Shown: positions 4,813 through 13,118 of the stretch, piece by piece | Layout of the letters: each line of letters starts with the position of its first letter | Numbering within the stretch: position 1 is the first letter of the stretch | Source: a virus | IMG/VR virus record: IMGVR_UViG_3300045125_000014 | Span: 1 to 39,972 of that record | Length of the DNA stretch: 39,972 nucleotides | Reading direction: 5' to 3' (one strand) | Notes under the pieces: model-generated | The model's input: only the letters and a program-made list of their open reading frames with translations | Database searches by the model: none | What the model was told of the DNA's origin: nothing | Position numbers and translations under genes: made by a program

Positions 4813-5815
4813 TTACTTGCTTTCGGCAGTCGCTTTAGCAAGGAATTCCTTTGCTAATGTCGCATAGCCTTTTGCAAGTGTAGGGTCAGTTGTTGCTTGT
4901 GCTTTCGCGTTGTATGCGGCGGCTTTGTAAGCATGTCATTGCTTGTTTCGCTCACTGGTTTTGCAGTGCGCTTTGGGCCACCAGCCACTGCGGAGATTTA
5001 GCCTCAGCCAACTCAGTTTCCAAACGACTTGCCTTTGACTCAGCGGCCTCTTTTGCCGACATGAGGTTCTGCAATGTCTGATTTGATTTTCTGTGTCGCG
5101 CTCTTGATTGCTTCCTCTACTATGGCTTCAACATCTACTGCTTTTCATCAGTAGAATCTTCTTTTACATCTTCTTCTGCAGGTACTTCTGTATCTGCAGG
5201 AGCGGCTTCATCAGCCTTATCTTCAACCGCATCTGCTTCTGCAGACTTTGGTGTTTGGTCAGGTGTGTACATCTCAGCGGTTGTTACATGTGATGGCTTT
5301 GCAACATTGGCAAAATCATTTGTAGTTGTTAAACCGTGGTCAGTGCCTGGTTGATTGCAACCGCACTCAAGGCACTTTGAAATATCTGCAGACTTCTCTG
5401 CTTCTACAGGCTTGTCAGTATCAGCCGCTGTGTATTTATCCCAACACTTAACAGCATCATCATCAGCCATGCCTGCTTCTTTGCAACGCTTCATAAAGTC
5501 AGCGCGCTTCTCGTCTTTCTTAGGCTTAATATCTTTTGGAGCGGCGGCCTTTGCCTCTACATAAGTTTCTTCTTCCACAACTTCTCCTTCTGCTTCTTCC
5601 CCTTCAAACCATGCAAAGAGGTGATGGACTGCGGCGAGCAGATGAGCAATAGAAACTTCCTCATTGTGGTCCTCATCGGCCATTTCTTTTGCTTCAATGG
5701 CGATAAGTTCTGCCAGCGCTTGACGGGCTTTGTCGTATGTTGCTTTATCAAATTTGTTCAATTCTGCAGGGGTATAACTTTTAGCCATATCAAGAATTTC
5801 ACTGGCAAGTGCCAT
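4813..5815 (-). CDS. Scaffold-like head assembly protein
   Basis: The start MALASEILDMAKSYTPAELN is fixed by an AGGAGG ribosome site; about 334 aa. An N-terminal helical part is followed by a very acidic, Ala- and Glu-rich middle containing a C-L-E-C-G-C cysteine cluster, then a helical coiled-coil-like C-terminus (S-R-L-E-T-E-L-A-E-A-K). The final residues are A-K-G-Y-A-T-L-A-K-E-F-L-A-K-A-T-A-E-S-K. At least three single-base breaks occur between about 4930 and 5140. An acidic, coiled-coil protein between the protease and capsid genes fits a scaffold that is degraded during head maturation. No family match is certain, and the cysteine cluster is unusual for a scaffold. The start overlaps the protease stop by 17 bases. 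Confidence 0.6.
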
Positions 5816-6374
5816 GTTTTTCCTCCTGTAGAAATGTTGGTTCTGATTGTAGATTATTTTCTGAATTATTTTCTGAAACTTCATGTAATTCTTCTACCTG
5901 CACTACAGTGTCATCAGCACCTGCAGACTTAGCCAAAACCAACTTAGCGTTTGGATTGGCAGGGCGGTCCACTAGAGATACTTCAACAATCTGACCATCA
6001 ACGATGCGGCCATTCATTGCGCTCTTGTCGCGGGTTACGCGTGGGTTTTTGATACCGATTGAAAAGCCTTTGAGTACGCCATTCTCAACTTTCTTTACTG
6101 ATACAGGGTCCACAACGAGGGCTGTAATGTAATGCCCATCTTCTTTTGCTTCATATTCTTGCGCTACGCCTGCGGCAATGTTGCTGTGTTGCTCACGGAT
6201 ATTGCCGCCTGTTTGGAACCAATGTGGCATTGCACGCTTGAGCCAATCAGCATCGCAAATCTGTTGGTCAATATCTAAGGAATCATCTGTGGCTTTGCCA
6301 TACACCGTAAGAGTTCCATCTGAATTCTTATCCGATTTTTCAATCCCAAAGAATTGTGTTGTCAGATTAGCCAT
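5799..6374 (-). CDS. Prohead serine protease
   Basis: The ATG at 6374 follows AAGGAG; the product is 191 aa, MANLTTQFFGIEKSDKNSDG onward. It shows V-Y-G-K-A-T-D-D-S-L-D-I-D, a conserved histidine in N-I-R-E-Q-H-S-N, then K-G-F-S-I-G with the likely catalytic serine, and E-V-S-L-V-D-R-P-A-N-P, all standard in HK97-type capsid maturation proteases. The enzyme cleaves scaffold and capsid N-termini after procapsid assembly. The C-terminal 35 residues are acidic and Asn-rich and overlap the scaffold gene. The gene is intact. It follows a small head gene and precedes the scaffold and capsid genes, the usual order. Confidence 0.85.
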   Translation of the reverse strand: MANLTTQFFGIEKSDKNSDGTLTVYGKATDDSLDIDQQICDADWLKRAMPHWFQTGGNIREQHSNIAAGVAQEYEAKEDGHYITALVVDPVSVKKVENGVLKGFSIGIKNPRVTRDKSAMNGRIVDGQIVEVSLVDRPANPNAKLVLAKSAGADDTVVQVEELHEVSENNSENNLQSEPTFLQEEKHGTCQ

Positions 6375-6698
6375 AGTTGATTTCTCCTTGCTTTCTTCTT
6401 GTCTAATAATTTTTTCGCCCAAGCCCAACCTGAATCGCCGCCCCAAAGGAGCCATGCAATCTTTCCGTTAGACGGTTTAGAAGCGTTGTTCCAATCCTTA
6501 CCTTTTTGTCCACTTCGTGACGGGCAAAAAAGAATTCATGCGCTTGATGGTGGAGAGAGATAACGCGCTTCCGTTAGCAATATCTCTAGCCCTGGCAATG
6601 CCTACCGCTGTACCGCCACGCCCATGCTTCTTGCGTAATTCTAGTCCTCTGCGGGCGTTACTGCGTACTGATTGCGGGGCTACAAAACCATCAGGCAT
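6362..6698 (-). CDS. Conserved head-region protein with RHEVDKK...GWAWA motif
   Basis: The frame starts MPDGFVAPQSVRSNARRGLE. After one base is restored at the AAAAAGG run near 6505, it continues R-H-E-V-D-K-K-G-K-D-W and W-L-L-W-G-G-D-S-G-W-A-W-A-K-K, ending N-Q-L-W-L-I; about 112 aa. I recognise this short basic domain (A-R-x-I-A-N-G, S-x-S-T-I-K-R-M, F-x-R-H-E-V-D) as recurrent in tailed phages near portal, protease or polymerase genes; its activity is not known to me. Its stop lies inside the protease gene, and its start abuts the previous stop (TAAATG), so it is co-translated with head genes. Confidence 0.65.
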
Positions 6699-6878
6699 TT
6701 AATCCTCATCTTCTATAACAGAAAACTTTGGTGTAACTGTACCTAATTTTTCCATAGCCCTGCGGCGTTTATCTAATTCAGCAATAGCACCTTCTACGCC
6801 AAATTTAGCCGATTCTGAAACTACTTGTAATGTTTGTTCAGACCAATCAATACCTTCTGTGCAATCTGCGTCTTTCAT
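6699..6878 (-). CDS. 59-aa acidic/helical head-region protein
   Basis: An uninterrupted frame encodes MKDADCTEGIDWSEQTLQVV through a charged helical stretch (A-I-A-E-L-D-K-R-R-R-A-M-E-K-L-G) to V-I-E-D-E-D. Start and previous stop overlap as ATGA; the stop abuts the next start. I recognise no domain. Its place between the minor head protein and protease genes suggests a minor head-assembly role, by position only. Confidence 0.6.
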   Translation of the reverse strand: MKDADCTEGIDWSEQTLQVVSESAKFGVEGAIAELDKRRRAMEKLGTVTPKFSVIEDED

Positions 6879-7043
6879 TCTTTTCCTGCACCGCCTTCCA
6901 ATAACCGTGAGATAAAAGGTTGTCTAGTAATTTTGATGGGTAGGCTTTGCCATCAGCATCAACAATGTGCGCGTAAATCATGTCGCCATCTTCTTTATCA
7001 GCACTATTTTTGCGCCATCTGCTCTGCGATAAATTACAGTCAT
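6875..7043 (-). CDS. Small head-region protein of about 56 aa
   Basis: The start ATG at 7043 gives MTVIYRRADGAK. With two single-base repairs it continues D-G-D-M-I-Y-A-H-I-V-D-A-D-G-K-A-Y-P and ends R-L-L-E-G-G-A-G-K-E, sharing an ATGA overlap with the next gene. The ending fits a coupled small gene better than the unrepaired frames, which stop inside the region. No domain is recognised. It immediately follows the repaired stop (7051..7049) of the long MuF-type gene. The frame is moderately uncertain because of the indels. Confidence 0.5.
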
Positions 7044-7048
7044 AATCA

Positions 7049-9765
7049 CTAGCCTTCCACTGGTATTACTTTTGATGTCTAATCCACTTTGCTCTATCAA
7101 TTCTTTGACCGCTAAATATGGTCCGTCTTTGACTTCTGCGTAAATGGTTTCTATATCTTCTAAACGCACACCGCCCGTAATCTGTGCTTTCAAGATAACT
7201 AGCCGCAGGCATACCGCCCATGTGTGTAGGTGCGCCATAACGATAAAGACCCATCTGCACAAGGTCAGGGTTGTGCCGTTTATGGAATCTGCTAAAACGC
7301 CTGTTCTTAAAGAGTCGTTAATAGTTACGGTGGTACGCGCTCTTACTGAATCTTTTAGGACTACCTTAATTGTTCCGTACTGATTTGTGGAATCATTAAA
7401 TACAGACAGAATACCTTGCCACGCATTGTTTATATCTTTAGACCGTTCTTCAAATGATTTAACTTTGCCTGTATTGGTTGTAATGTATCCGTAAATTGGT
7501 CTGTCTTTGGGCGCAGTTCCTAAATCAACATCAAGCGCCGCTTTTTCGCCAATTTTGCGTGTCGTTGCGCTCTTTAGTCCACCTGATGTTCCTGTTTCAA
7601 ATTGATTCTTAAATCTACCTTCAGTTACAACTGACTTTAGAGATGGCAAAGAAATAGCCACTGTCACCTTACCTTCAGCCATAGCGTTTTGAATTGTGGC
7701 TTGTGCTACTTCTAGTTTTTTCTGTAATTAACTGCATCTTCAGCGTATCCATCTGCAATATATCCTCTTAATTCTTGTGCAACTCTTTCAACTTCTTGTT
7801 TGTTTTCTAAGTAAAAACGAGTGCGCAACATTATGCCCGCTACTTGATTTTCAGCATCGGTTTTGCTCAAACCTTGAGCCTGGTATTTTTTAATCATGGG
7901 CCAATAAATATCTGTGTTATCTATTTCGCCTCTTGAGCCTCTGCCCGCAAGAGCGTCAATGAGCCTGTCATCATCTGCATCTTTCGGCAGGTAGGCTCTT
8001 ATCTCTTTTACTTCATCTTCAATCTCTGCATTACGCTTAATGGAAGATGACTCACTATCCACATTTACAGGCTTGATAGCATCAGATTCCACCACTCCCA
8101 AAGCAGGGCCGCTCGCCGATACATTTGGCTTGTTCCAGTTAAACTCTTTTGCCATGGCTAAAACCAAAGGATTCTTGGTCTGTCCTTTAGTCAAAATATA
8201 TTCTGCATACATTTCCGCATAGAACTCTTTGGTGTTCTTTTTTGCATATCCTGAAACAACCGCTTCAGGCACATCTGCAAATTGTTTTTTCAAAGCCTCT
8301 ATTTTGGCTTTTGTTGTTGCGTTTTGTACGGATTCAAAAACCCAGTTTCGCCGCCTGTATCTAAAGCGTGACCCCATTCATGCGATAGCGTGTATTTGCG
8401 ATGAGGCACATCAGCAATAACAGGCATCTTAAACCCTAGTTCTTTCAGCAATGGTGTGCCTTGTTTGACCAATGAAGGCGTGAGCCAAATTTTTGCATCG
8501 CCTAGTACAGCACTGCCATAATGCTTACTGCTTTCCTTAGCGACAATAACTGTCATTTCGCTTTTGGTGCAACCATCTGTAATTCTTCAATGTCTTGTAA
8601 CAAGCAATTTTTGTTTCTTCTTTAATTTTCTTGCCCGTGGAGTAGAACTGCACTGTGATAGGCCCGTTTTCATAAACAACGCCATCTAACAATGCTAGGT
8701 CGCTTTTACTTATACGCTTCATGTCTATAAATGCTTCAATGTTCTCTCTTGTTCTGCCCGTTGATACCATGTAAGCGTTAATGACTTGTTCACGGATTTC
8801 ATCTGCAGAAACTGTGCGCCATTCACCAGGGGTAAAGACAGCGTTCTTTTTGCGCTCCGCCTCGTCTAGTTGCGCTCTGATTGCTTCTCTTACATTTGTA
8901 GGTTTTTCATTGGTCAATCTGTATGAGGTTATAGGTGCAGGAGGTGTTGTGATTGTTGCCCCTGGTGCAAGTTGTTCCTCATCAAATCCAGGAATTACAG
9001 GAGCCAAAGCGCATCGGCAATGAGGGTGTGCGGGTGGCTGTAGGTCGCCTGATGGAAATGGTGTGCCAATGTTTACTTTTTCATTGGCGTTTTTAGCACA
9101 AATCGCACAAGGCTCAAACACAAGCCATTCCTGTTGTTGTAGTCAGCCTCTTTGTATCGGTTTACTGTGGCCTGCGATATAGCGCGGTTTTGTTCTGTGA
9201 TTGCAATACTTAAAGCGCGTGCGGGATTGGCTACATGATTAGAAATCAGTTTGGCTGATTGCTTTGCATCTAATCAAGGTAGATAGCCTCACCAATAGCA
9301 TTGCCAATATCAGTCAGCGTTGTATCAGAAAAGCCTTTGAATGTGATGCCTTGATTTTGTAGTAATTGTTGAAAGGCGCGAGGTGGCTTGAGTAATAATG
9401 CTGATACTGCATCGCCTGGTTTCCATTTAGACCAATCAACAGCACTTTGTGTATCTGCTTTGCGCGCCGTCTTTGCTTCTTCAATCGCTTCTCTTGCGGC
9501 TAAATCACCAAGAGCATAAGCCTGCGCCCATAATCTATAAATAACTGTCTTTAAGTGCTTCTAAATTAGGCCTGATATTTACCGTTGCCCACGCTCTTGC
9601 TCTTGCGCGCTGTTGCGGCAGGGTCAAAGTTAAATCAGGAGTAGTAGATAGATAGCCTTGATATGCACGCTCCGCATCAAACTGTTGTCGTAGAGCGGCC
9701 CTTACAAGTAATGCGTTCTTAGCCGCTAAACGCGCATCTGCCTCTAATGCGCGCTCCCAAGTCAT
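7049..9765 (-). CDS. Giant MuF-type minor head protein with HEWGH metallopeptidase-like and extra C-terminal domains
   Basis: The start ATG at 9765 overlaps the portal stop (ATGA). The repaired product is about 905 aa. Residues 1 to about 215 are helical (MTWERALEADARLAAKNALL onward). At about 9121..9011 comes the MuF signature: C-A-I-C-A-K-N-A-N, F-P-S-G-D-L-Q-P-P, H-P-H-C-R-C. After a Pro/Thr linker, a domain at about 8560..8170 holds T-L-S-H-E-W-G-H-A-L-D (8382..8368 for HEWGH) and a downstream E-F-Y-A-E-M-Y-A-E-Y, as in HExxH...E zincins. A charged linker leads to a last domain (7680..7050) with R-P-I-Y-G-Y-I, V-R-A-R-T-T-V-T-I-N-D-S-L and Q-I-T-G-G-V-R-L-E-D, which I cannot name but which could be ADP-ribosyltransferase-like. 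At least six indels split it. MuF proteins enter the head beside the portal and may be ejected into the host. Confidence 0.7.
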
Positions 9766-11637
9766 GTTAGATACGCTTTTGCGAGCGCTCTTGCGGTGTC
9801 TAAATCGCCGTCAAATGCACAACGGTTAAGCGCTTCACCAACAATCGGGTCTAGGCTCTTGAATTCAAATAGTCGTGCGCGCTTTCCTTTTGCCGCCCAC
9901 TTCAAAATGATTTTACTTCAGCCCTAGTTTCTGCATCAACTTCTTCTTCAACCTCTGATGCTTCTTCAGGAGTAATTTCCTCAGGCTTTTCTTCAAGGTG
10001 TTTGGTGTTGTTGGTGCATCAGGTGTTGCATCAGGGCCTGACAATGTTGGGGCAGATGTAACTTCTTTGCGTTGATGATTCCTTCAGGTGAGAACAAGAA
10101 GATGTCAGAACCAGTAACAAGCATTGGCATATCTGCTTGAGGTGTATCTAATAGGGGCAAACCAAGTTCAGAGCGGCGTTCATTGATTGTTTTGCCTGCG
10201 CTCTTTACTTCAATATCCGCCTTCCTTGCGCTAGATTCATTATCCATGCGCTTGCTAGTCATGAGGCGGAACTCAAGTTCACGCGGCATGCCTAGATATG
10301 TGTAAGAAAGATTTGAAATCATCTTGCTAATCCAGTTTGCAAGAGGCGCGATTCCGATTGCTTCTGCGTTTTCGGCGCGGGCTTCTTCAAAACCTTTTCC
10401 GCCTAATCCGCCTTTTGCAGAGAATCCGATTTCACTTGGTTGTACACCAAAGTGACCGCAAATAGAAGTAATCAAATAATCATCAAGAGTGTCTTTGAAT
10501 TTCTCGCCATAACCTTCATTTACTATCGGTGAAAGGCCTTTGGCAAGCAGGCGAGCGCGCTTGCGCTGTTCTGTTTGTCCTGCGAGGTCATCATTGAGAA
10601 TGTTCTCGTATGCTCTAAGGAGGTCGGGGTTTGTTCCCCAATCTTCATCAGTTGTGAACATAAGTTCAGGAAGTACGCCATCTGTGTACTCCGCTCTGAA
10701 CCATTGTTGTCGTCTGCAGGTATATGTCTGCCAAAGGTAATGCGCGTCCACAGGGCTAAAGCCGTAAACGCTAATGCTCCTGCGGTTGCGCACCATGTAA
10801 GCAAGTTGGTCACTGTGTGAATTCTCCATCTGCTTTTGGATCCTCGTCTGTTGCAGTAAATTCAGAGCGAGGGAAAGCCATAAAGGATTTGTTGGAACGC
10901 CGCATTTGGTGGCATTGGTCGCATACCGCGGTCATCAATCAATGGCTTAATTGTTGAGCCATCAAGTATCTGTAGGCCATACAAGATCTCCGCCTACTGT
11001 TGGTTGCGGATAAACAGCCCAAGCATCAATTACAAGAATGTCCTCAAGAGCAATGTTGAGCCAATCATTCCAAAGCAATCCGTTTGCCTTGTCAGGCGTT
11101 TCCCAAAATTCTCTCTAGGCGTGCGATTTCTTCTGTGTACTTTTCGCGTGCGCGAGCCATAGCGCGTACATGGTCGCCACCTGCTTCTGCAGTAATCTTT
11201 TCGGAAGCATCGTTGCCCAAAACAATATCCCAATCAAGACCAACCATTTTGTTTTTGGTTACTTCTAAGCATCGGCGCAAGATGTCAATTTGGTCTGCGG
11301 CGGCGCGTAATGTCTTGAAAGGTACAAGGCGTGTTTCAGTTACATTGATGTTTTGCGCTACTTGATATTCATAGCGGCGTGGTTGTGGTCGCCCGTTATC
11401 TTGTAGCGGGTTAATTGCACCTGGTGTGATTGGCAATCCAGGACCAAAAGGAACAGCGGCACTGAATGGAGCGCGTGGCAACGCAACAGAGTTTCCGTAG
11501 GTTTGGCGCATGGTTAATGCGTCAGCCTGATTGCGCATTTCTGCTTCAGACATCGTGACAGAACCTGCAGGCAGGCGAGGTGCTTTCTCTACATCGCCTG
11601 TAGCGATTACTCTTGCGATTCGGTCACGCAGACCCAT
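9762..11637 (-). CDS. Portal protein
   Basis: The protein begins MGLRDRIARVIATGDVEKAP and is about 625 aa after repairs. It shows an N-T-E-like V-T-E-T-R-L-V-P-F-K-T-L-R, N-K-M-V-G-L-D-W-D-I, then the diagnostic portal motif D-G-S-T-I-K-P-L-I-D-D-R-G and P-P-N-A-A-F-Q-Q-I-L-Y-G-F-P-R-S-E-F at about 10,960..10,855, and an R-S-I-S-V-Y-G-F-S-P region. The acidic C-terminus (E-E-K-P-E-E-I-T-P-E-E-A-S-E-V) ends with A-R-L-F-E-F-K-S-L-D-P-I-V and A-K-A-Y-L-T. Breaks occur near 11,090, 10,990, 10,815, 10,065 and 9,905. Portals form the dodecameric DNA gate of the head. The stop overlaps the MuF gene. The usual terminase neighbour is separated from it by three structural genes. Confidence 0.85.
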
Positions 11638-11676
11638 GTGAATCTCCTTTTAGCCCCTTTGTACTGCGGGCGGTTA

Positions 11677-13118
11677 TTAGGCGTGGACTACAACTCTGTA
11701 TTGATTGCTTGTTGGAGCAACAGAGAATAGGAGAGTTATAGCAGTTGTGCTTGTATGTTGCACATCGCAGACAACCTCAGCGTAAGGGCTTGAGTTATCG
11801 TAAACGCTAACAACAACATCGCGGGTTCCAAGATTGTGAGTGATTGTGTAGGAGGTGTTGGAGCCATCACCGACATTTGCCGCATATTTGCGTACGACTA
11901 CTGTTGTATCAATTCCAATGCCACCAGCCGCTACAACGATTCCTGAATCAGCAACAGCGCTAATAACATTTGAGGTGATATTGATGCCGTTACCAGCGGT
12001 GAATACACCAGGGCCTGCTAATTGCACCCATGTCTGACCAGCAAAAGAGGTTAGGTAATGATTGCTTTGTGTCCAAGAGGTTCCAGCCTTTGTGGTTCCT
12101 TCAAGAATGTAGATTGTTGCGCCTTCTAGTTCTGCAAAGGTGCTTGCATCTGCGGCGCGTGTAAGGGTGTAGGTGGTTCCGTTGTCGTTATAGACATAGA
12201 TACCATCTTCAGTGTCATCGCTCTGACCTGTAAGAACAATTCTGTATCCGTTGTCTGCAGAAGTCAGTGCGCCATAAGTATCAATGTTTAATGTACCTGT
12301 GTTGCCTGATAGCGCCTCATTAACTGTTGAGAAAAGATTTGCGGCGGCTTTCCAAGTTAGACCTTCAACAGCGGCATCAACATAACCTTTGTTTGCGGCA
12401 TCTGTTGAGTTGGTTGGTGTTGCAAGGTTTGTAATCTTGTAAGAGTTGAGGTTGATGTCAGCCAAAGGAACAGTAAGCGCAGAAAGATTGATTGCGAGTG
12501 CGCCGCATTATCGTGTGTAGGTGTTCCGTGTTGGTGGTCAGCGCGTGCAATGCTTGTGCTTGTTCCGTTTGCGCTCGCCGCTCCAAATGTTTGTTCTGCA
12601 GTAACGCCACCAAATGAAGGCATACCGTGTGTGTGGTCCTCGCGGGAAGGTGCAGTGCCTGTTCCTGCCGCACCTGAGCCACCTACAGAGAGTGCAGAAG
12701 GTGTTTTGATTGGAAAGTGATGGAGTACCGTGAGTGTGGTCTGCGCGTGCGTAGTTATTTGATGAACCGTTGCCACTTGATGCGCCATAAGTTGTTTGTG
12801 CAGTTACAGTGCCAAAGTTAGAAACCTGTGACCATGTTGCGCCATCATCAAAATAGAGAATCTGTTGGTCTGTTGCAAAATAAAGAAGTCCTGCTTCACC
12901 AGCGGCGGGGCGTGCGGCAAATGTTCCGTACTTGACCTCTGATTGATTTAGTACATCTACCCAAACAGTGCCATCATAAAAGTAAATGCTGTTATCGCCT
13001 GTGTCATAGTAAATCTGACCAGCGCTAGGAGTACCAGGGGCTGTACCTAGATTTTGAATGACTGCATTTGCAATTCATTCTTGTTAAGGTCTATTGATAC
13101 TAGAAACTTTCTTGCCAT
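11677..13118 (-). CDS. Fibre-like structural protein with RADHxHG repeats
   Basis: The start MARKFLVSIDLNKNEL follows an AGGAG site; about 480 aa. After two or three indel repairs, the N-terminal part reads G-T-A-P-G-T-P-S-A-G-Q-I-Y-Y-D-T-G-D, a segment typical of phage fibres. Three R-x-D-H-x-H-G-x-P repeats follow (about 12,740, 12,640 and 12,530), then I-T-N-L-A-T-P-T-N-S-T-D-A-A-N-K-G-Y-V-D, a collar shared with phage tail fibres, and a C-terminal T-H-N-L-G-T-R-D-V-V-V-S-V-Y-D domain. All point to an elongated surface protein. It lies between terminase and portal, away from the tail fibres at 29 to 36 kb, so it could be a head fibre or neck whisker. The C-terminal 262 aa are one open frame. 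Confidence 0.65.

What the first reader, a model, noticed from the sequence alone, without database searches (positions are those of the whole stretch)
7049..9765. Very long MuF minor head protein with HEWGH peptidase-like and unassigned C-terminal domains
After indel repair, one gene of about 905 codons joins a MuF core (C-A-I-C...H-P-H-C-R-C) to a zincin-like domain (H-E-W-G-H at 8382..8368 plus E-F-Y-A-E-M-Y-A-E downstream) and a third domain with R-P-I-Y-G-Y-I, R-x-R-T-T-V-T-I-N-D-S-L and Q-I-T-G-G-V-R-L-E. MuF proteins are known carriers of polymorphic C-terminal toxins. Two possible enzymes on one internal head protein, delivered with the DNA, would be an attractive host-takeover system. 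Alternatives: a head-maturation protease or self-cleaving domain. The third domain could be ADP-ribosyltransferase-like (R, S, E positions), but that is a guess.
Basis: partly seen in the sequence, partly recalled or inferred. Interest (0 to 1): 0.82.

Follow-up and report, generated by a model that had tools for sequence, protein, structure and literature searches.

The report
Phage head protein carrying two enzymes
A capsid-associated protein of an uncultured bacterial virus joins a head-building part to a zinc-protease-like part and an ADP-ribosylating enzyme-like part; in related viruses the last part and a small neighbouring gene are exchanged or missing together, like an interchangeable weapon with its own safety catch.

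Summary
A minus-strand gene (9765→7049, about 905 codons, broken by roughly eight frame changes in an indel-rich IMG/VR record) encodes a MuF minor head protein, a zincin with HEWGH (8382-8368) and downstream EFYAE (8227-8213), a helical linker, and a C-terminal ADP-ribosyltransferase (ART) domain. The zincin profile matches lethal-factor-type metallopeptidases (E 1e-5; structure Z 9.7). The third domain belongs to Pfam DUF3626 (55 of 58 relatives), and an AlphaFold model of a close relative (pLDDT 90) is closest to SopF (Z 12.7) and DarT (Z 11.3).

Added: intact MuF-zincin relatives end after the zincin or carry a different, PARP-like ART. Each ART type has its own small adjacent gene: RGYW type for the window's ART (51 of 97 distinct domains), PYxxW type for the PARP-like one (8 of 8, against 0 of 17 without an ART). 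L068 has both ARTs and both small genes. ART plus small gene behaves as a swappable cassette.

MuF-toxin and polyvalent proteins are known, so this is a new variant of a known kind. Injection, enzyme activity and the small gene's role (immunity, chaperone or adaptor) are untested.

The parts
9005..9765 (-). MuF (portal-associated minor head protein) region, N-terminal part of the gene, with the Cys/His cluster
   Evidence: Pfam PF04233 matches the window fragment weakly (15.6 bits); intact homologue L009 scores 39.5 bits against a cut-off of 29.6; 77-82% identity by segment
8130..8900 (-). Zincin-like metallopeptidase domain: HEWGH at 8382-8368, EFYAE at 8227-8213
   Evidence: HEWGH invariant in all 28 aligned rows, downstream E-x-x-A-E in at least 90%; profile against PDB lethal factor E 1.1e-5; structure Z 9.7
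7715..8130 (-). Helical linker, in the same open frame as the end of the zincin
   Evidence: open frame 8377-7715 runs from zincin end through linker; the stretch just before the ART aligns to L098, where it is continuous with the ART
7049..7727 (-). DUF3626-type (SopF/DarT-like) ADP-ribosyltransferase domain; Arg codon 7502-7500, Ser codon 7313-7311, Glu codon 7191-7189
   Evidence: Pfam DUF3626 5.6e-4 and phrog_8314 1.7e-9; 55 of 58 relatives match DUF3626; AlphaFold model of L098 domain pLDDT 89.6, nearest PDB folds SopF and DarT
6850..7043 (-). Small RGYW-type partner gene (MTVIYRRADGAKIV...LLDNLLSHGYWKAV), frame broken; exact 3' end uncertain
   Evidence: homologous to the gene after the ART in L098 (E 1e-8) and to the L002, L014, L074 versions
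6702..6878 (-). Conserved next gene (CTEGIDW...KFSVIEDED), which follows MuF-zincin directly in phages without an ART
   Evidence: matches the L149 next gene E 1e-10; position in relatives
9765..11637 (-). Portal protein gene (frame-broken), directly upstream
   Evidence: 91% identity of its first part to the intact L009 portal; phrog_2662 E 2.7e-28

Best explanation
The gene encodes a virion-associated MuF protein that carries two independent enzyme modules. A constant lethal-factor-like zincin comes first (shown as a domain; protease activity inferred). A C-terminal SopF/DarT-like ADP-ribosyltransferase follows (fold and conserved glutamate shown; activity inferred). The ART and a small adjacent gene form an exchangeable cassette at the 3' end of the MuF-zincin gene (shown by comparison). 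Most likely the protein sits inside the head near the portal, enters the host with the DNA, and the ART modifies a host macromolecule early in infection, as T4 Alt does (inferred). The small partner protein most likely holds the ART inactive, or chaperones it, in the cell that makes the phage (inferred). The zincin most likely has its own role, either self-processing of the MuF protein or cleavage of a host protein, because it is kept in relatives that have no ART.
For: MuF. Zincin. ART. Cassette: among MuF-zincin genes with a readable 3' end, 8 of 8 with a PARP-like ART are followed by a PYxxW gene overlapping the stop by a few bases and 17 of 17 without an ART are not; the window has the DUF3626 ART plus an RGYW gene; L068/L071/L072 have both ARTs and both small genes. 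Reverse search from an RGYW motif: 21 loci with the DUF3626 ART next door, the others being contig edges or L126 and L134. Independence of modules: MuF-ART without zincin (L098), MuF-zincin without ART, zincins plus DUF3626 ART in other large proteins (L066, L102), zincin with an ADPrib_exo_Tox domain (L172). Precedent: the MuF-ART toxin Bxa with adjacent immunity proteins (PMC11699363), MuF toxins with metallopeptidase or ART domains (PMC5576092), polyvalent proteins (PMC5512222).
Against: No intact relative shows exactly this triple fusion. Packaging and injection were not tested. About half of the DUF3626 ARTs have no RGYW gene recognisable by the profile; some have a different small gene, some none seen. 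The RGYW domain also occurs after a zincin (L126), at the end of another protein (L134), and fused to the next effector (L002, L140), which fits a chaperone or adaptor as well as an immunity protein. The loci are related, so the counts are not independent events.
Confidence: 0.68

Rival explanations
1. The zincin is mainly a self-processing protease: it cuts the MuF protein before or after packaging to release the C-terminal ART, as proposed for MPTase domains of polyvalent proteins.
For: The zincin sits between MuF and the ART in the window and in L009-type proteins; processing roles are proposed for such domains, with P1 DdrB as example (PMC5512222).
Against: In 17 loci with a readable 3' end there is no ART behind the zincin to release, and L098 fuses MuF to the ART with no zincin.
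Confidence: 0.35
2. The small partner is not an immunity protein but a chaperone or head-targeting adaptor for the ART-bearing protein.
For: RGYW domains are fused to the start of following effector-like proteins (L002, L014, L140) and once follow a zincin (L126).
Against: Each ART type has its own unrelated small gene, and both occur in L068, which suits cognate inhibitors better; MuF-ART Bxa has proven adjacent immunity proteins (PMC11699363).
Confidence: 0.4
3. The ART region is a separate gene downstream of a MuF-zincin gene, and the first reader's joining of frames is wrong at that point.
For: A stop codon lies at the junction near 7715, and an ATG at 7682 could start a separate ORF of 234 codons; in L002 the ART is a separate gene after MuF.
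Against: In L098 and most relatives the helix before the first strand, which a start at 7682 would cut, belongs to the ART domain; L009-type genes fuse MuF, zincin and another ART in one intact frame; the window changes frame about every 340 bases in this gene anyway. No promoter or ribosome-binding site was examined.
Confidence: 0.12
4. The ART targets nucleic acid, like DarT, rather than protein.
For: DarT structures are second nearest to the model (Z 11.3 against 12.7 for SopF).
Against: SopF, a protein-modifying enzyme, is nearest by structure and the only ART found by the sequence profile; a shared fold does not fix the substrate.
Confidence: 0.25

Closest known systems
MuF polymorphic toxins (Jamet 2017, PMC5576092), with the characterised MuF-ART toxin Bxa (PMC11699363)
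   Same: MuF core, variable C-terminal enzyme including ARTs and metallopeptidases, small adjacent genes
   Different: Here a constant zincin sits between MuF and the exchangeable ART, the ART is DUF3626/SopF-DarT-like, and the small partners (RGYW, PYxxW) match no Pfam family above cut-off where scanned
Polyvalent proteins of phages (Iyer 2017, PMC5512222)
   Same: Several unrelated enzyme domains in one head-delivered polypeptide; zincin plus ART combinations described
   Different: Compact three-part protein with a cassette boundary at the 3' end that moves with its own small gene
SopF / DUF3626 (PDB 7dn8, 7dn9)
   Same: Best structural and sequence-profile match of the ART domain
   Different: Here fused to a phage head protein, with an adjacent small gene; SopF is a secreted effector acting in eukaryotic cells
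DarT (DarTG toxin-antitoxin)
   Same: Second-best fold match; also an ART paired with a neighbouring protein
   Different: The neighbour here is a 60-90 residue protein, not a macrodomain antitoxin
Mycobacteriophage D29 gp2 / Tierra gp9 / TP901-1 ORF33
   Same: Same ART family; Tierra gp9 is already annotated 'capsid maturation protease and ADP-ribosyltransferase'
   Different: No HEWGH zincin seen in these sequences; D29 gp2 is a short stand-alone protein filed as unknown function in PHROGs

Membership tests
MuF toxin / polyvalent head protein | MuF domain fused upstream of enzyme domains, next to the portal gene | tested here: met
   Pfam MuF above cut-off in L009-type and L007 homologues; portal directly upstream
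MuF toxin / polyvalent head protein | C-terminal enzyme domain exchanged between otherwise similar proteins | tested here: met
   window DUF3626 ART, L009-type PARP-like ART, 17 loci with none
MuF toxin / polyvalent head protein | Cognate adjacent immunity protein | tested here: inconclusive
   cognate small genes co-occur; neutralisation not testable here
MuF toxin / polyvalent head protein | Present in virions and injected | not testable with these tools
   needs virion mass spectrometry
ADP-ribosyltransferase superfamily, DUF3626 (SopF/DarT-like) branch | ART fold | tested here: met
   AlphaFold model of close relative pLDDT 89.6; SopF Z 12.7 over 182 residues, DarT Z 11.3
ADP-ribosyltransferase superfamily, DUF3626 (SopF/DarT-like) branch | Profile membership | tested here: met
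   DUF3626 above cut-off for L098 (30.1 against 27) and L004; 55 of 58 relatives at E 0.01 or better; the window's own broken fragment is below cut-off (19.4)
ADP-ribosyltransferase superfamily, DUF3626 (SopF/DarT-like) branch | Conserved catalytic glutamate | tested here: met
   E176 of YxExQ at least 90% conserved in A5; window Glu codon 7191-7189 beside a frame change. That it is catalytic is inferred
ADP-ribosyltransferase superfamily, DUF3626 (SopF/DarT-like) branch | NAD-dependent transferase activity | not testable with these tools
   biochemical assay needed
Zincin metallopeptidase, lethal-factor-like (ATLF) | HExxH plus downstream Glu on a second helix | tested here: met
   HEWGH invariant, E193 and E197 at least 90%; helices at 134-147 and 191-204 in the model
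Zincin metallopeptidase, lethal-factor-like (ATLF) | Pfam ATLF score above curated cut-off | tested here: not met
   24.5 bits against 27.4 at best; so called a zincin, lethal-factor-like, not filed as an ATLF member
Zincin metallopeptidase, lethal-factor-like (ATLF) | Zincin fold | tested here: inconclusive
   lethal factor Z 9.7 and PPEP Z 9.2, but from a model with mean pLDDT 65 (about 80 in the zincin part) and no Foldseek match at E 0.001
DarT (DarTG) | Paired macrodomain antitoxin | tested here: not met
   neighbouring partner is about 60-90 residues, too small for a macrodomain
Head-maturation protease | The phage lacks another prohead protease | tested here: inconclusive
   a weak Peptidase_S78 match, 16.2 bits against 21, lies downstream at 5802-6455

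The most novel reading that the evidence does not exclude
Phage MuF-zincin genes carry a docking place at their 3' end where two-gene cassettes, a C-terminal ART plus its own new small inhibitor family (RGYW or PYxxW), are exchanged as units, so that phage heads are loaded with swappable host-modifying enzymes, and the DUF3626/SopF effector lineage has a large reservoir in phage heads.
Probability: 0.4. Interest if true: 0.7.

Novelty: new variant of a known kind. Interest (0 to 1): 0.52.

Why it matters
It gives a likely function to a phage family listed as unknown (PHROG 8314, which includes D29 gp2), links a bacterial effector fold to proteins of phage heads, and offers two new small candidate inhibitor families whose pairing with their ARTs can be tested directly in laboratory strains.

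Tried and rejected
Nucleotide search of 5000-12000 against phage records: no match. tblastn with the zincin alone against phage records: no match even at E 1. First genome scan with the ART alignment: none; the second gave 11 loci, mostly actinobacteria, none with a recognisable RGYW gene. Considered and dropped: that the zincin exists only to release the ART (it is kept where there is no ART); that RGYW is strictly ART-specific (L126, L134); that the R of RPIYGY is the universal ART arginine (missing in D29, TP901-1 and SP-15 sequences). The PARP-like ART of L009 was scanned (PARP E 0.17) and folded only as part of a low-confidence model, so 'PARP-like ART' is a weaker assignment. A search with the helical linker found only the window itself among the loci held.

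Full report
The window is a virus record of 39,972 bases from IMG/VR, and its genes are broken by many small frame changes: intact relatives of the portal and MuF genes align to it in pieces in different frames. I compared the region with intact relatives rather than trusting any repaired frame, and folded only unchanged proteins of relatives.

Gene structure. The minus-strand gene starts at 9765 and stops at 7051-7049. Its first half matches one intact 795-residue ORF in L009-L012, at 72-82% identity in the best segments, which contains MuF, the zincin and a different C-terminal domain. Its last part matches L098, an intact 649-residue ORF that joins MuF, a linker and the same ART, 41% identical over 215 residues. 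The frame 8377-7715 runs open from the end of the zincin into the linker. A separate start for the ART is possible but less likely: it would cut the first helix of the domain seen in relatives.

Zincin. In 28 aligned rows HEWGH is invariant and the downstream E-x-x-A-E is kept in at least 90%. The profile finds lethal factor (E 1e-5) and Pro-Pro endopeptidases (E 0.09) among solved structures, and Pfam ATLF just below its cut-off (24.5 against 27.4). The AlphaFold model is modest (mean pLDDT 65, about 80 in this part); its best structural matches are lethal factor, Z 9.7, and PPEP, Z 9.2, while Foldseek alone gave nothing at E 0.001. I take it as a zincin with intact catalytic residues.

ART. 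Pfam DUF3626 matches weakly in the window (E 5.6e-4) and above cut-off in L004, L005 and L098; 55 of 58 relatives match it. A model of the L098 domain is confident (pLDDT 89.6, pTM 0.89) and nearest to SopF (Foldseek E 2e-10; Z 12.7 over 182 residues) and DarT (Z 11.3); the sequence profile also finds SopF (E 7e-8). SopF itself carries DUF3626 (PMC6682159). Nearly invariant residues include the Glu of YxExQ. The family is wide: at least 127 viral stretches, and in named phages D29 gp2, TP901-1 ORF33, Tierra gp9, SP-15 gp271, Nodularia and DSL-LC01; D29 gp2 belongs to PHROG 8314 of unknown function. Tierra gp9 is already annotated as an ADP-ribosyltransferase, so the assignment is not new everywhere.

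Cassette. Beside the window's ART lies a small gene whose relatives end in ...SILARGYWE.... A profile finds such a gene beside 51 of 97 distinct ART domains, mostly directly downstream with a short overlap, sometimes directly upstream. Scanning the collection for the motif itself gave 26 stretches; 21 have the DUF3626 ART next door, and the rest are contig edges or L126 (after a zincin) and L134 (end of another protein). In MuF-zincin genes with a PARP-like ART the same place is held by an unrelated small gene (PYxxW), in 8 of 8 readable cases; of 17 readable zincin genes without an ART of these two types none has it, and in many the next gene is the one that follows the small gene in the window. 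L068, L071 and L072 carry both ARTs in tandem and both small genes. One of the 17, L172, carries a third kind of ART (ADPrib_exo_Tox) ahead of its zincin, and L170 was read only in part. The loci are related, so the hypergeometric value of 9e-7 overstates the independence.

Mechanism. Shown: domain identities, conservation, module exchange, cognate small genes. Inferred: packaging and injection (by analogy with T4 Alt and MuF toxins, PMC5512222, PMC9503650), modification of a host target, inhibition by the partner (by analogy with Bxa, PMC11699363). The zincin probably has a role of its own, since it persists without an ART behind it and the ART occurs without it.

Verdict. MuF toxins and polyvalent proteins are known kinds; the new points are the SopF/DarT-like ART as a widespread phage-head module, the constant zincin with an exchangeable ART, and the two candidate partner families.

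Noticed in passing
window 1-39972: Record is indel-rich throughout (143 mostly short ORFs; portal gene also broken), so any ORF-based annotation of it is unreliable.
   Followed up: partly
L002 7392-8702, L014 4948-6702, L101 5614-6705: Repeated motif like KHGxHDQSSHGSWAHG near the start of effector-like proteins and between modules; could be a processing or targeting signal.
   Followed up: no
L066 ORF 1071-5624: One protein with three HEFGH zincin motifs and a DUF3626 ART.
   Followed up: no
L172 ORF 4450-6534: Zincin at the C-terminus of a protein with an ADPrib_exo_Tox domain above Pfam cut-off.
   Followed up: partly
L140 4972-5925: RGYW domain fused to a PARP-like ART, directly after a DUF3626 ART gene.
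   Followed up: no
L030 (D29) 1261-2291 and L032 (Malec) 1539-2506: Stand-alone DUF3626 ART (gp2/gp3) followed by a small gene (gp3/gp4) not similar to RGYW, near the left genome end.
   Followed up: partly
BFVD search: DUF3626-like ART structures also in giant viruses of protists (Bodo saltans virus, Yasminevirus).
   Followed up: no
L173-L183: DUF3626-like ARTs in bacterial genomes, mostly actinobacteria, without a recognisable RGYW gene.
   Followed up: no
window 5802-6455: Weak prohead serine protease (S78) match downstream, suggesting a separate head-maturation protease.
   Followed up: no
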